Shown in pieces: positions 29,965 through 33,998 of a stretch of DNA of 49,304 nt. Below the pieces are notes generated by a model. It was not told where the DNA came from, did no database searches, and saw only the letters and a list, made by a program, of their open reading frames with translations. The position numbers and the translations under genes are program-made. The first letter of the stretch is position 1. Each line of letters begins with the position of its first letter. The stretch is from positions 1 through 49,304 of the forward strand of contig CAMYLP010000011.1 of NCBI GenBank assembly GCA_947259245.1, given 5' to 3'. The stretch comes from an uncultured Patescibacteria group bacterium. Its GTDB lineage: Bacteria; Patescibacteriota; Minisyncoccia; Phycocordibacterales; UBA12088.

Positions 29965-30000
29965 ACACCCCGGCAAGGCCGGGGTGTGGTGTACTATTTT
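29965..30000 (+). terminator. strong GC-rich terminator, convergent
   Basis: 10-bp perfect stem (29965-29974 with 29978-29987), AAG loop, further partial pairing of flanking GTACACC/GGTGTAC, then ATTTT. It serves tspO; the stop of the convergent gene (29994) lies in its tail. Confidence 0.85.
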
Positions 30001-30344
30001 GCCTCATAGTACATAGACGATGTTCGGTACTCGTGATCATGAACCACGTGCACCTTCTCCGTTGAGGGGAGTGCACCTTCGTCTTTCATGACGTTCTCAT
30101 GAAAACGGGCGAATCGTTCAACTGCCATCGCCTCCCAGTACGATCGGTCGTTCCCAGTTTCAGCTGTTTGAAGATACTGAATCCATGGGAGCTCCCCATC
30201 ATACGAAGCGGGTGTATAGTCACCCAGTTCCAGGATGGTGCAACGTTTTGTAACTTCGTCACACACCTTCCATTCCTCAACTGACTGAAATGCGAATGCT
30301 GATGAAGAGATTACCAGTGTAAAGAGAACAATGAAAAGTCGCAT
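29994..30344 (-). CDS. small secreted hypothetical protein
   Basis: 116 residues. A clean signal peptide (MRLFIVLFTLVISSSAFAF, probable cut after AFA) is followed by about 97 acidic residues with one Cys pair (EWKVCDEVTKRCTILEL). C-terminal part is His/Tyr rich (VHVVHDHEYRTSSMYY). No family recognised. AGGAG lies about 8 bases before the ATG, and a near-consensus promoter sits upstream, so it is well expressed by expectation. It lies between tspO and the DUF3179 gene. Confidence 0.75.
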   Translation of the reverse strand: MRLFIVLFTLVISSSAFAFQSVEEWKVCDEVTKRCTILELGDYTPASYDGELPWIQYLQTAETGNDRSYWEAMAVERFARFHENVMKDEGALPSTEKVHVVHDHEYRTSSMYYEAK

Positions 30345-30377
30345 TTGATGCTCCTAAGTTAAATAAGACCAATGTGG

Positions 30378-30405
30378 ATTATAACACGTACTTACTTTTT
30401 GTAAA
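30378..30405 (-). promoter_or_regulatory. near-consensus promoter of the 30344 gene
   Basis: Minus strand: TTTACA (30400-30405), 16-base spacer ending TGT, perfect TATAAT (30378-30383). Start near 30371, leader of about 26 bases containing AGGAG. Confidence 0.78.
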
Positions 30406-30407
30406 GG

Positions 30408-31415
30408 TTACTCAGCCTGCCACACTACACCGTCGTCCTGATGGTGTGTCGCCCACGAGAACCACATAGCGTAGTAGCCCGGTACCACGGCACCATCACT
30501 GGTCGTGACCGTTACTTCTGAATCTTCCACGCTCGCGGTGATCGTCTCCCCGTCAACGGTCATGACTGCCTCCCCTGCCTCGCGGAGGTCGGTGTGGTGA
30601 AAGGCAAACGATGTGTCACCTACATCCACAATGTACATTATCTCTTTCGCAGGTAGACGTGTGTCGCTCACCGACACAGGGAACAAAATGCGTTCGTTGG
30701 TCTCATAGTCCCCGTAGGGGTACAGAGAGTAATCACGTATATGTCCCGTGTTCCGACTCAACACCTCGCCGGTCGGGTGCTTACTCACAAACTCATCAAA
30801 GGGCATCACCTGTGAAGGGTATACCGCAAGCGTCTTCCCCGTATGGGTACCTACCATTGCTTCTCCTAATATCTGGGACCACAAGCTATGTGTGTCGCCG
30901 TCGTACATGAGGAGGTTCGACTCAAAGAGCTTCCCTGAAACGCCAAATTGCTGGGCTTGGTCGTCGACTCGTGCATCGAACACAACGGTCGAACCGCAAA
31001 GCGGGCAAAACGTCACCACGAGCGGCTGGTCCTCAATGATGTCGTTCACTATCTCATGCCACACCATGATGTTGAAAGGATAGAAACGTGTCGTGTCGCC
31101 GACCGTCACAACGATACCACGTTCATCGGTAACTCCTTGATCGCGTGCCTCATCGATGGAGAGGAACGATGGCTCATTAATGGCTGGGATATTGTCCCGG
31201 TATGGTGTGCCGGAGAGCACTCGTTCGAGTGGTATCGAGGCAACGTCGGTGTTTGTGCGCAGACCGCCAGAAGCAAAGGCGGTACTGTAGTCCGTAGTTT
31301 CTTGTATCATACGTGTTTCTTGGGCACGCTCGCGACCGCCCAATGCCATCCACGTTGCTATGAGAAGAAAGCTGATAAAGAGTGTGGCAAGAATAATGCG
31401 TCGTGTTGTGTTCAT
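30408..31415 (-). CDS. DUF3179 family exported protein
   Basis: 335 residues. N-terminal anchor or signal (IILATLFISFLLIATWMALG, about 7-26), then the DUF3179 fold: YPFNIMVWHEIVND, VTFCPLCGSTVVFDA, SGKLFESNLLMYD, SLWSQILGEAMVG, PSQVMPFDEF and YLPYGDYE-like blocks. The CPLC pair is the family's hallmark. Function of DUF3179 is unknown. It is the last of five tightly spaced genes; the first two handle disulfides, which makes a redox role of the CPLC pair attractive (inference). Confidence 0.92.
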   Translation of the reverse strand: MNTTRRIILATLFISFLLIATWMALGGRERAQETRMIQETTDYSTAFASGGLRTNTDVASIPLERVLSGTPYRDNIPAINEPSFLSIDEARDQGVTDERGIVVTVGDTTRFYPFNIMVWHEIVNDIIEDQPLVVTFCPLCGSTVVFDARVDDQAQQFGVSGKLFESNLLMYDGDTHSLWSQILGEAMVGTHTGKTLAVYPSQVMPFDEFVSKHPTGEVLSRNTGHIRDYSLYPYGDYETNERILFPVSVSDTRLPAKEIMYIVDVGDTSFAFHHTDLREAGEAVMTVDGETITASVEDSEVTVTTSDGAVVPGYYAMWFSWATHHQDDGVVWQAE

Positions 31416-31416
31416 A

Positions 31417-31782
31417 CTAGCAACGGTTACGAAGATACATACGCGTACCCAGTTTGCCTGCTACCATCGCAAGGAGCGCCACAGGCAGCCAAATGTCGAC
31501 GCTCGTCATGAAGACCTGATAGGCGATGCCAACAACGAGAACCAAAATGCCTGCCAGGTACCCTATTCTGCCCGCAAGCTGCGCATGGTGCTGCTCCCGC
31601 TCATCTCGAGAACGTTCGTGCCACACGGCACCTGCAAAGAAGCCAAACACCACGATGAGCAGTATGACCAATCCTTTCTGTAGACTGATGGGGATGAACG
31701 AAAGCATGGGGTCGCACGTAAATATGACCAGAAAGAGAAATGCGATCGTTATGATGAGTTCAAGAAGTTCCTTTCGTTCCAT
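31417..31782 (-). CDS. four-helix membrane protein, DUF2178-like
   Basis: 121 residues, four membrane helices. Between helices 2 and 3 a cytoplasmic loop reads HERSRDEREQHHAQLAGRIGYLAG; the DERE...AG pattern resembles DUF2178 proteins, which are often paired with a small XRE regulator, as here (regulator 5 bases upstream). The pair may sense membrane or redox state, but no function is proven. One base separates it from the DUF3179 gene. Confidence 0.7.
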   Translation of the reverse strand: MERKELLELIITIAFLFLVIFTCDPMLSFIPISLQKGLVILLIVVFGFFAGAVWHERSRDEREQHHAQLAGRIGYLAGILVLVVGIAYQVFMTSVDIWLPVALLAMVAGKLGTRMYLRNRC

Positions 31783-31787
31783 ATGAG

Positions 31788-31994
31788 CTAATGTAACTTG
31801 AATAATGTTTCAACAGGTGTCTTGAATGTGTGCGCCAGTCGTATGGCAAGCGCAACCGACGGAGTGTAGTTTCCTTTCTCTATTGCGATAATGGTTTGAC
31901 GCGTCACACCTATCGAATGGGCGAGCTCTTCTTGCGTCAGTCCCGCTGCTTTTCTGTGCTCTTGTACCATATTATCAAGTGTCTCTTCCATCAT
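31788..31994 (-). CDS. XRE family small transcriptional regulator
   Basis: 68 residues from ATG 31994 (or ATG 31991), one base after the ccdA stop. Helix-turn-helix: EHRKAAGLTQEELAHSIGVTRQTIIAIEKG, then NYTPSVALAIRLAHTFKTPVETLF, the compact YozG/HTH_3 type that dimerises through the last helix. Longer readings upstream only cover the ccdA gene in another frame. Being inside the operon whose promoter has a 9-2-9 palindrome, it is the prime candidate to bind it (inference). Confidence 0.93.
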   Translation of the reverse strand: MMEETLDNMVQEHRKAAGLTQEELAHSIGVTRQTIIAIEKGNYTPSVALAIRLAHTFKTPVETLFKLH

Positions 31995-31995
31995 G

Positions 31996-32733
31996 TTATG
32001 TTCCCACCTCAACGCTATCGAGGAGGTGCTGTTCCACAACTGTAATATCGAATAGTCCTGCGTCAAGGAGCGCGGCTTCCAGTTTTTTATCGAGACCAAA
32101 CATGATGCCGATACCGACGGCGATAATGAGCACACCCACACCGCGTTTCACCCATCCTCTTGGATCGGCGGCGGCATCGAGTCGTCCGACGATGCGCTGC
32201 CCCAGCAGTGCAATGAGGAGGAGCATAAGTGAAAGTCCAACGGTGTAGGCAATGAGGTACACTATACCCACTGCAAAGCTAGCGGGCAGCACGGTCGCGA
32301 GTATCACGAAGTATGTCGGGGAACACGTGCTGAACACGGGTCCAAGCGCGGCGCCCATGATAACGTCTCCCCAGACCGACTGTTTTTTATTGCCCGTTGC
32401 AAGCGCGATCTGTGATTTCCTGTTTATGTATGCATTTATTGGCAAGCGCTCCCACAGTTCTGGAAAGAGGAGAAAGATGCCAAGCACGAGTAGTATGCCA
32501 CCGCTGAAGTATGTCCAGAACTGCGGTGGTACGGCAATGAACGCCGTGGTTGCCTTTAACAGTAAGGTAAAGATGACGACCGAGGCCGCCAAGGAGCCGA
32601 TGATGACCATTGGCTTCCTGAAGTTTTTTGCATCCGCAGCCGCTCCGCCGATAACGACCGGCAGGAGCGGCAGGATGCACGGCGCTAGTACCGTCAGCAC
32701 TCCAGCAACAAATGAGATGAGTAGTAGCGCCAT
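31996..32733 (-). CDS. CcdA/DsbD-type thiol-disulfide membrane transporter
   Basis: 245 residues, six membrane helices. Redox cysteines: Cys19 in LTVLAPCILPLLPVVIGG and Cys137 in PVFSTCSPTYFVILATVLP, the matching pair that passes electrons across the membrane. Typical CcdA length. It starts 6 bases after the thioredoxin-like gene, its obvious partner. Probably keeps extracytoplasmic thiols reduced, or serves an oxidising relay. Confidence 0.92.
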   Translation of the reverse strand: MALLLISFVAGVLTVLAPCILPLLPVVIGGAAADAKNFRKPMVIIGSLAASVVIFTLLLKATTAFIAVPPQFWTYFSGGILLVLGIFLLFPELWERLPINAYINRKSQIALATGNKKQSVWGDVIMGAALGPVFSTCSPTYFVILATVLPASFAVGIVYLIAYTVGLSLMLLLIALLGQRIVGRLDAAADPRGWVKRGVGVLIIAVGIGIMFGLDKKLEAALLDAGLFDITVVEQHLLDSVEVGT

Positions 32734-32739
32734 ACAACT

Positions 32740-33294
32740 TTACTGTGTTTGTGTGGCGACCTGCGCAGCGTTGCTGCTGCCGAGCCACTTCTTTATCATG
32801 GTACCCTCTGCGTCTACCTGCACAAAACTGTGCTGGCTCGTGAGACCGTACTTCTGGCGAAGTTCCGTGTTCTCGTCGTAGTCTGCCTTGAGGATGGTGA
32901 GACCTTCAGGAATCTCCTCGCTGCTCAAATTCTTGTCTGCGCTTCGGCAGGACGGGCACCACGTCGCGTGGAAGAAAATGACCACATCCCCCTCCTCTGC
33001 CCTAGCAAGCTTCTCGGGTGCATACACCTCATATGAGCCAGCAACTTGTGTAGGCGTACCCTCGTCGGTTATCACTTCGTCCGGTGTACCCACAGGTACA
33101 GGTGGCACGTCTTCTGTGGTTTCCGTTAGGACTTCGGTCGTGACCGGTGCAACAGCGCTACTGTCATCGACGGCCACACTCGACTCTTCCGAGGTGCCAC
33201 TTGTGAGGAGCCATACGAGAAGCAATGCAACAACAATGACACCGACAATGATGTATAGTGGATTGCCGCCTTTTTGTGCCTGTTCTTCGTTCAT
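32740..33294 (-). CDS. membrane-anchored thioredoxin-like protein
   Basis: 184 residues. Membrane anchor at 13-30, a Thr/Val/Glu-rich linker to about 85, then a thioredoxin fold with FFHATWCPSCRSAD (active site Cys113-Pro-Ser-Cys116) and SQHSFVQVDAEG containing, in place of the usual cis-Pro, a His-Ser. Loss of cis-Pro is unusual. First gene of the operon; partner of CcdA outside the membrane. Confidence 0.9.
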   Translation of the reverse strand: MNEEQAQKGGNPLYIIVGVIVVALLLVWLLTSGTSEESSVAVDDSSAVAPVTTEVLTETTEDVPPVPVGTPDEVITDEGTPTQVAGSYEVYAPEKLARAEEGDVVIFFHATWCPSCRSADKNLSSEEIPEGLTILKADYDENTELRQKYGLTSQHSFVQVDAEGTMIKKWLGSSNAAQVATQTQ

Positions 33295-33326
33295 AAATAA
33301 TTGGATTAAAAAATAATAGTCTCTCT

Positions 33327-33355
33327 AGTGTACACAAGCTGTGCACATATGTAAA
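33327..33355 (-). promoter_or_regulatory. promoter of the redox operon
   Basis: Minus strand: TTTACA (33350-33355), 17-base spacer, TACACT (33327-33332). Start near 33320; leader of about 26 bases. The -35 sits inside the palindrome 33349-33368. Confidence 0.7.
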
Positions 33356-33368
33356 GTGTACTTTACAT
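33349..33368. promoter_or_regulatory. 9-2-9 palindrome, probable operator
   Basis: ATGTAAAGT-GT-ACTTTACAT, perfect arms. It covers the -35 box of the leftward redox operon and lies 24 bases before a TACAAT box (33392-33397) of the rightward gene, so one regulator could control both. Confidence 0.65.
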
Positions 33369-33425
33369 GGTTATCCACGTGTGAACCACGGTACAATACG
33401 TACAGACACACAAGGGAGACATCCG

Positions 33426-33998
33426 ATGCAACTCCAACTCAGAGAGGTCGAACCTCTCATAATTGAGGAGGTTCGCCGTAAGCGGTATCCAAAACTCACC
33501 TTCAAGCACCTCATAGAACGTACAGTGCGCATACACAAGCTGTACATCCTCACCCCAGAACGTAGGCTTGTGTCGATATTCATACTCTACGACACCGAGA
33601 CCGACTACTACCGTGTCATTAGGGGTCCGTCATCGTGGTGTTCTGTTGGTGTGCGCCAGAATGAGACCGGTCACATACGCAGGCTTATATGTGCAAACAA
33701 GCTTCACAGCGAGCCATTGCGACATGTGCGGCAAAAGTATGTTCGACATGTACCGGCGCTCGATGTGGTGGTGTTCTCAGAGACCAACGACGCTCGCACT
33801 GTTGGCCTACGGTACCTCTGTAGCATCACAAAGGAGTACAAGTACCTGGTGCAGAAAGGATGCGAGGAGTCGTTGGCCACACTGGGCATCAACCACACAT
33901 ACGTGCGTAATCGTATCGATGAAGAGTACGAACGACGTATGTTGCACGCGGAAGCAAAACGCCTCAGCCCGGACCTCGACCTGTGGCCTGAAACCTGA
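33426..33998 (+). CDS. hypothetical cytoplasmic protein
   Basis: 190 residues from ATG 33426, preceded by GGGAG at good distance (a GTG at 33381 is possible but lies on top of the -10). Basic, no membrane segment, no family recognised. Blocks that may be conserved: EPLIIEEVRRKRYPKLTFKH near the start, YILTPERRLVSIFILYDTE, and a helical C-terminus NRIDEEYERRMLHAEAKRL. Divergent from the redox operon over 131 bases with a shared palindrome, and followed by a terminator. Confidence 0.72.
   Translation: MQLQLREVEPLIIEEVRRKRYPKLTFKHLIERTVRIHKLYILTPERRLVSIFILYDTETDYYRVIRGPSSWCSVGVRQNETGHIRRLICANKLHSEPLRHVRQKYVRHVPALDVVVFSETNDARTVGLRYLCSITKEYKYLVQKGCEESLATLGINHTYVRNRIDEEYERRMLHAEAKRLSPDLDLWPET

What the first reader, a model, noticed from the sequence alone, without database searches (positions are those of the whole stretch)
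30408..33368. Five-gene redox operon under a palindromic operator, with its own XRE regulator
Thioredoxin-like protein, CcdA, XRE regulator, DUF2178-like membrane protein and DUF3179 (CPLC) are spaced by 1-6 bases behind one promoter whose -35 is covered by ATGTAAAGT-GT-ACTTTACAT. Three of the proteins carry redox Cys pairs. Inference: a membrane thiol-relay in which CcdA and the thioredoxin deliver electrons to DUF3179, switched by the XRE protein, perhaps through the membrane partner. DUF3179 has no known function, so this context offers a testable one.
Basis: partly seen in the sequence, partly recalled or inferred. Interest (0 to 1): 0.68.

Follow-up and report, generated by a model that had tools for sequence, protein, structure and literature searches.

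The report
Regulated electron relay feeding DUF3179
A tiny-genome bacterium carries a compact set of genes that appears to carry reducing electrons across its membrane to DUF3179, a protein of unknown job, under a conserved DNA switch; related species even fuse the carrier and DUF3179 into one protein, which makes a function for this orphan family testable.

Summary
Five genes (thioredoxin-like TRX, CcdA, XRE, a 4-TM protein "MEM", DUF3179) lie on the minus strand with gaps of 6, 1, 5 and 1 bases, behind ATGTAAAGT-GT-ACTTTACAT, which overlaps a -35. TRX, CcdA and DUF3179 each contain exactly two cysteines. (1) CcdA lies within 3 kb of DUF3179 in 14 of 33 genomes of the order (0.5 expected), and in two families CcdA and DUF3179 are one fused protein with TRX upstream. 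(2) The palindrome is conserved: 31 of 297 genomes of the order and 26 of 287 of the phylum (reversed control 0), mostly just upstream of TRX-CcdA. It tracks the XRE gene (30 of 31 genomes) and also sits directly upstream of DUF3179 in four other genomes whose XRE is elsewhere. A -10 box follows its right arm at 16-17 bp. CcdA is also fused to MsrA-MsrB or redoxin-thioredoxin domains, so DUF3179 occupies a terminal-acceptor slot. DUF3179 is a published selenoprotein family (UxxC), consistent with a catalytic CPLC. Best reading: a repressor-switched extracytoplasmic thiol relay, like Etrx-CcdA-MsrAB, with DUF3179 as terminal thiol enzyme. Substrate and signal remain unknown.

The parts
33349..33368 (.). 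Palindromic operator ATGTAAAGT-GT-ACTTTACAT overlapping the -35
   Evidence: Unique in genome at <=2 mismatches; conserved upstream of TRX-CcdA across the phylum, reversed control 0
33327..33355 (-). Promoter: -35 TTTACA (33355-33350), 17 bp, -10 TACACT (33332-33327)
   Evidence: at other copies of the palindrome a TATAAT-like box is concentrated at 16-17 bp (30 hits against a mean of 1.3 at other spacings)
32740..33294 (-). TRX: membrane-anchored thioredoxin-like protein, CPSC (C113, C116)
   Evidence: PF00085 30.2 bits (cut-off 23.5); N-terminal TM segment; only two Cys
31996..32733 (-). CcdA / DsbD_TM electron carrier, C19 and C137
   Evidence: PF02683 28.6 bits (cut-off 27.1); the two Cys invariant in 8 aligned CcdA domains, loop charges fit N-out/C-out
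31788..31994 (-). XRE (HTH_3) regulator, 68 aa
   Evidence: PF01381 55.9 bits; close relatives co-occur with the palindrome in 30 of 31 palindrome genomes
31417..31782 (-). MEM: 4-TM partner protein of XRE, conserved DERe..hr..agR loop
   Evidence: Found next to XRE in the XRE loci inspected; conservation; no Pfam family above cut-off
30408..31415 (-). DUF3179 protein, N-terminal TM anchor, CPLC (C137, C140)
   Evidence: PF11376 265 bits, cut-off 27; C137-P-L-C140 invariant in 32 aligned sequences; AlphaFold2 pLDDT 92

Best explanation
The operon encodes a self-regulated extracytoplasmic reducing relay. CcdA takes electrons from the cytoplasmic thiol pool through its membrane cysteine pair (C19/C137) and passes them to the membrane-anchored thioredoxin TRX (CPSC) outside. 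TRX, or CcdA more directly in the fused versions, reduces the CPLC pair of DUF3179, which acts as a terminal extracytoplasmic thiol (in some bacteria selenol) enzyme on a substrate still unknown. XRE binds the palindrome over the -35 and represses the operon; its membrane partner MEM probably senses an envelope signal and releases it. Shown here: gene order, cysteine pairs, fusions, conservation of operator and promoter spacing, XRE-operator co-occurrence, absence of the operon from this site in congeners. Inferred: direction of electron flow, XRE binding, repression, MEM as sensor.
For: CcdA-DUF3179 fusions (549 and 547 aa) with a separate TRX gene upstream in two families. CcdA within 3 kb of DUF3179 in 14 of 33 genomes, 0.5 expected. 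In other members of the XRE-MEM module the same C-terminal slot of CcdA holds MsrA-MsrB or redoxin plus Thioredoxin_10. C137 and C140 invariant in 32 aligned sequences; family published as selenoprotein with UxxC/T. Exactly two Cys in each of the three redox proteins. Palindrome in 31 of 297 order and 26 of 287 phylum genomes, reversed control 0; 30 of 40 representative sites have TRX or CcdA starting downstream; 30 of 31 palindrome genomes carry a close XRE, hypergeometric 5e-34; -10 box at 16-17 bp. Palindrome beginning 24-46 bp upstream of DUF3179 in G186, G271, G293 and G138, whose XRE genes are on other contigs. Other palindrome-preceded genes are largely redox: MsrA/MsrB, a thioredoxin-reductase-like flavoprotein, Pyr_redox_2 with VTT.
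Against: No biochemistry. Most DUF3179 genes of the order lack the palindrome, and in several an ArsR gene accompanies the operon instead of XRE. 13 of the 33 DUF3179 genomes have no CcdA found within 7 kb, some because contigs end. A few palindromes precede genes with no obvious thiol link, such as a Glu/Leu dehydrogenase and a TPP enzyme. Three of the four other genomes with a palindrome upstream of DUF3179 are one genus.
Confidence: 0.72

Rival explanations
1. Metal or metalloid handling: DUF3179 binds copper or another soft metal through CPLC, and TRX-CcdA only keeps that site reduced, as in metal-site assembly outside the cell.
For: Several DUF3179 operons carry an ArsR-family gene with conserved Cys; one palindrome in G009 lies near a cupredoxin gene.
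Against: Selenocysteine replaces the first Cys in published members, which is typical of catalytic redox sites; the UxxT form has no second Cys; MsrA-MsrB share the regulon and the fusion slot.
Confidence: 0.13
2. DUF3179 is an intermediate thiol shuttle or isomerase that passes electrons on to many envelope proteins (or to cytochrome c maturation), not a terminal enzyme with its own substrate.
For: CxxC motif; position beside thioredoxin-fold shuttles and DsbA-like proteins.
Against: Fold comparison of two confident models lists Rieske-like barrels, not thioredoxin folds (weak Z). Many invariant or near-invariant polar residues outside CPLC (E121, N124, D125, S160, S166, Q181, W179) look like an active site.
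Confidence: 0.2
3. DUF3179 is a passenger: the XRE-MEM-TRX-CcdA module is the functional unit and DUF3179 is merely co-transcribed.
For: XRE-MEM-TRX-CcdA occurs without DUF3179 in most genomes that have it; the operon is absent from this site in congeners.
Against: CcdA-DUF3179 fusions and TRX-CcdA-DUF3179 clusters without XRE-MEM (L033, L048, L053, L062); palindrome upstream of stand-alone DUF3179.
Confidence: 0.06
4. XRE is an activator, or regulation at the palindrome is by another protein.
For: Some palindrome genomes and sites have no XRE nearby.
Against: A palindrome lying over the -35 with normal 16-17 bp spacing to the -10 is the layout of a repressor site (inference); XRE and palindrome co-occur at the genome level.
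Confidence: 0.2

Closest known systems
CcdA-Etrx-SpMsrAB2 pathways of Streptococcus pneumoniae (PMC3914529)
   Same: CcdA plus surface thioredoxin-fold protein feeds electrons to an extracytoplasmic terminal reductase; in Patescibacteria the same module also carries CcdA-MsrA-MsrB fusions.
   Different: Here the terminal protein in the operon is DUF3179, not MsrAB; control is by XRE-MEM and a palindrome.
msrAB-trx-ccdA-modRS locus of Fusobacterium nucleatum (PMC9239216)
   Same: Regulated locus with Trx, CcdA and a terminal reductase, induced by hydrogen peroxide.
   Different: Two-component ModRS instead of XRE-MEM; MsrAB instead of DUF3179.
DUF3179 selenoproteins (Zhang and Gladyshev 2007, listed in PMC9312934; PMC13188914)
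   Same: Same Pfam family PF11376 with redox position UxxC/T, presumably corresponding to CPLC.
   Different: Cysteine form here; no operon context or electron donor was found described in the papers searched.
DipZ-type proteins (CcdA fused to redoxin and thioredoxin-like C-terminal domain; from memory, M. tuberculosis Rv2874)
   Same: CcdA with an extracytoplasmic C-terminal redox domain; such a fusion occurs in the same XRE-MEM module (L159 by Pfam).
   Different: C-terminal domain is DUF3179 in L049 and L061.

Membership tests
DUF3179 (PF11376) | Score above the curated cut-off | tested here: met
   265.1 bits, cut-off 27
DUF3179 (PF11376) | Conserved CxxC/UxxC redox position | tested here: met
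   C137-P-L-C140 invariant in 32 aligned sequences; UxxC/T in published selenoproteins
CcdA / DsbD_TM (PF02683) | Score above the curated cut-off | tested here: met
   28.6 bits, cut-off 27.1
CcdA / DsbD_TM (PF02683) | Two intramembrane cysteines and six TM segments | tested here: met
   C19 and C137 invariant across 8 domains; six segments in two relatives, five plus a hydrophobic stretch by the same threshold in the window copy
Extracytoplasmic thioredoxin (Etrx-like) | Thioredoxin domain with CxxC and membrane anchor | tested here: met
   PF00085 30.2 bits (cut-off 23.5), CPSC, N-terminal hydrophobic segment
CcdA-Etrx-MsrAB pathway | MsrAB as terminal reductase in the operon | tested here: not met
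   No Msr gene in the window operon; MsrA-MsrB fused to CcdA in relatives
CcdA-Etrx-MsrAB pathway | Electron transfer from CcdA/Trx to the terminal protein | not testable with these tools
   Needs purified proteins or thiol trapping
XRE (HTH_3) regulators | Cro/C1 helix-turn-helix | tested here: met
   PF01381 55.9 bits, cut-off 23
XRE (HTH_3) regulators | Binding of XRE to the palindrome | not testable with these tools
   Co-occurrence only
   Not among the families listed at E<=0.1; none of those listed reaches its cut-off
Rieske [2Fe-2S] proteins (PF00355) | C-x-H ... C-x-x-H cluster ligands | tested here: not met
   Motif absent from all 32 DUF3179 sequences; ligands invariant in 15 aligned Rieske domains
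Rieske [2Fe-2S] proteins (PF00355) | Rieske fold | tested here: inconclusive
   Core model: all 50 listed rows are Rieske-type, best Z 7.4, rmsd 3.4, 98 aligned, but below Z 8; profile comparison shows no sequence relation

The most novel reading that the evidence does not exclude
DUF3179 is a new kind of extracytoplasmic thiol/selenol reductase built on a Rieske-like fold that has no cluster ligands and uses CPLC (or UxxC) instead. It is fed by CcdA in the slot otherwise taken by MsrAB or DipZ-type domains, and belongs to a phylum-wide Patescibacteria envelope-redox regulon run by a previously undescribed XRE-membrane-sensor pair on ATGTAAAGTnnACTTTACAT.
Probability: 0.35. Interest if true: 0.8.

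Novelty: new variant of a known kind. Interest (0 to 1): 0.64.

Why it matters
DUF3179 is a widespread orphan family (this phylum, an actinomycete, Haloferax, published deltaproteobacterial selenoproteins). Fusion to CcdA and a shared operator give it a specific, cheap-to-test role: electron acceptor of the CcdA relay. The palindrome also gives a predictable regulon in Patescibacteria, a phylum where very little gene regulation is known, and points to envelope oxidative repair (MsrAB, DUF3179) as what is switched.

Tried and rejected
Rieske homology by sequence: profile comparison gave probability under 1%, so only fold resemblance is claimed. The first idea that H120-X16-CPLC matches the Rieske spacing was dropped: H120 is Arg in L065 and L066, and the structural ranges suggest CPLC need not lie on a cluster motif. 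No DUF3179 relative in the PDB by sequence. Foldseek gave no significant PDB match. Toxin-antitoxin reading of XRE (hits to HipB/RstR-type models, all below cut-off) rejected because XRE-MEM travels with TRX-CcdA. Thiol sensing by XRE or MEM rejected as the simple model: no conserved Cys. Viral-collection copies of the palindrome gave no XRE, TRX or CcdA nearby and were not followed. Paper searches for DUF2178, PF11376, Patescibacteria with CcdA, and Saccharibacteria with methionine sulfoxide found nothing beyond the selenoprotein tables.
Full report
WHAT IS THERE. The window lies in a 0.95 Mb, 97% complete genome. The nearest named DUF3179 relative is a Candidatus Vogelbacteria bin, placed in the same order as the window's genome (the 8,039-base contig is G063:C1), so this is a member of the Patescibacteria / candidate phyla radiation (inference). 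Five genes run on the minus strand with gaps of 6, 1, 5 and 1 bases: TRX, CcdA, XRE, MEM, DUF3179. Pfam confirms four of them above their cut-offs. TRX, CcdA and DUF3179 each contain exactly two cysteines and XRE none.

THE OPERATOR. ATGTAAAGT-GT-ACTTTACAT at 33349-33368 is unique in the genome at up to two mismatches. One arm holds TTTACA, 17 bp from TACACT. At 57 distinct copies of the palindrome collected from relatives, a near-consensus -10 (5 of 6, A2 and T6) is found 30 times at 16-17 bp from the arm hexamer, against a mean of 1.3 per spacing elsewhere. So the arm is the -35 element of a real promoter and the palindrome lies across it, which is the layout of a repressor site (inference).

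THE OPERATOR IS CONSERVED AND BELONGS TO XRE AND TRX-CcdA. With at most one mismatch it occurs in 31 of 297 genomes of the order and 26 of 287 of the phylum sample; the reversed control pattern occurs in none. 30 of the 31 order genomes have a close XRE relative (E<1e-17), which only 36 of 297 have (hypergeometric 5e-34; the E cut-off was chosen after seeing the list). XRE is followed by MEM in the loci inspected, and the usual order is XRE-MEM-[palindrome]-TRX-CcdA. Of 40 representative sites, 30 have a TRX or CcdA gene starting downstream, TRX typically 40-110 bp away; in the window it is 55 bp. In the window the order is shuffled: XRE-MEM sits inside the operon, between CcdA and DUF3179, which would make it self-regulated.

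THE LINK TO DUF3179. PF11376 is found in 33 of 297 genomes of the order. CcdA (PF02683) lies within 3 kb in 14 of the 33, with 0.5 expected. G135 (counted among the 14) and G279 (missed by Pfam's CcdA model, found by a profile) encode CcdA and DUF3179 as one protein of 549 and 547 aa with TRX immediately upstream; loop charges put the C-terminus of CcdA, hence DUF3179, outside (positive-inside rule). In three species of one genus (G186, G271, G293) and in G138 a palindrome begins 24-46 bp upstream of the likely DUF3179 start although XRE is on another contig. In the three congeneric species the palindrome is inside the longest fully conserved block of a region about 70% identical. There the left arm reads ATGTATAGT and no good -10 lies downstream, so the promoter position may differ (unresolved).

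WHAT ELSE FILLS DUF3179'S SLOT. In the XRE-MEM module CcdA carries C-terminal MsrA-MsrB (L165 by Pfam, L164 alike by length and CFWC) or redoxin plus Thioredoxin_10 (L159 by Pfam; L160, L161, L179 alike by length and CINC). Palindromes also precede MsrA/MsrB genes (L158, L163), a thioredoxin-reductase-like flavoprotein and a Pyr_redox_2-VTT protein. DUF3179 therefore stands where terminal extracytoplasmic reductases stand.

A SECOND REGULATOR FOR THE SAME PAYLOAD. Several DUF3179 clusters of relatives include an ArsR-type regulator with conserved Cys, a glutaredoxin, a DsbA-like protein, a TlpA-like protein, CcdA, a thioredoxin-reductase-like flavoprotein and sometimes DUF3105 (Pfam run on single examples). 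The nearest DUF3179 relative (60% identical) has an ArsR-like gene, a glutaredoxin-like gene, TRX, CcdA and DUF3179 in a row. The window operon is thus a variant with XRE-MEM in place of ArsR.

DUF3179 ITSELF. C137, P138, L139 and C140 are invariant in 32 sequences, with many invariant polar residues elsewhere. Published selenoprotein tables list the family with UxxC/T, traced to Zhang and Gladyshev 2007. Selenocysteine at the first position supports a catalytic redox role (established pattern for selenoproteins). The AlphaFold2 models are confident (pLDDT 92, pTM 0.84 and 0.89). Structure comparison lists almost only Rieske-type proteins (core model: 50 of 50 rows, Z up to 7.4, 81-106 residues aligned, rmsd 2.4-4.2). 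Z is below 8, sequence profiles show no relation and the Rieske ligands are absent, so this is a lead. The protein contains an internal duplication (hhalign E 2e-5).

ORIGIN. Three congeners and four other family members in the order sample lack DUF3179. Flanking transketolase, RPE and RpiB genes are syntenic in five congeners, and ATP-synthase genes in those whose contigs reach them. In G412 transketolase is followed within 155 bp by a gene resembling the small secreted-protein gene found just beyond the operon in the window, then TspO and tRNA-Ala. The operon plus the 190-aa gene at 33426-33998 is therefore an insertion (or was lost from the congeners) next to a tRNA cluster.

MECHANISM AND CONFIDENCE. 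Best reading: CcdA to TRX to DUF3179, repressed by XRE at the palindrome, with MEM as likely sensor (0.72 for the relay feeding DUF3179; the sensor step is weaker). Neither XRE nor MEM has conserved cysteines, so the signal is probably not read by a thiol switch in them. Closest known systems are the CcdA-Etrx-MsrAB pathways (PMC3914529, PMC9239216). Not shown: binding, electron transfer, substrate.

Noticed in passing
L164:1250-3055, L165:3374-5170: CcdA fused to MsrA and MsrB in one protein of about 600 aa, behind XRE-MEM and the palindrome: a single-chain membrane methionine sulfoxide reductase in Patescibacteria (Pfam run on L165).
   Followed up: partly
window 29994-33998 against L206 (G412): The operon plus the 190-aa gene 33426-33998 sits between transketolase and a small secreted-protein gene next to TspO and a tRNA cluster; five congeners lack it at this site and the segment is variable among them.
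   Followed up: partly
window 33426-33998 (+): Divergent 190-aa protein with no Pfam or NCBIfam match, transcribed away from the palindrome.
   Followed up: no
BFVD A0A1V0SD44 (Indivirus ILV1): Strong Foldseek match of the DUF3179 model to an uncharacterised giant-virus protein (E 6e-11, TM 0.69 on the target).
   Followed up: no
L050, L049, L061, L033, L035: DUF3179 clusters with an ArsR-family gene carrying two conserved cysteines, plus glutaredoxin, DsbA-like, thioredoxin-reductase-like and DUF3105 genes in various members.
   Followed up: partly
L142:616-2694, L151:3-2057, L169:3576-5660: A flavin disulfide reductase fused to a VTT (DedA-like) membrane domain next to the palindrome or right after XRE-MEM; possibly another electron entry route into the membrane.
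   Followed up: no
window 30405-30378 (-): Strong promoter-like site (TTTACA, 16 bp, TG-TATAAT, 11 of 12) just after DUF3179, for the next small secreted-protein gene.
   Followed up: no
L209-L215 (other parts of the phylum): Palindrome directly upstream of TRX-CcdA with no XRE-MEM within 1.5 kb except in L213, so the regulator is in trans or different there.
   Followed up: no
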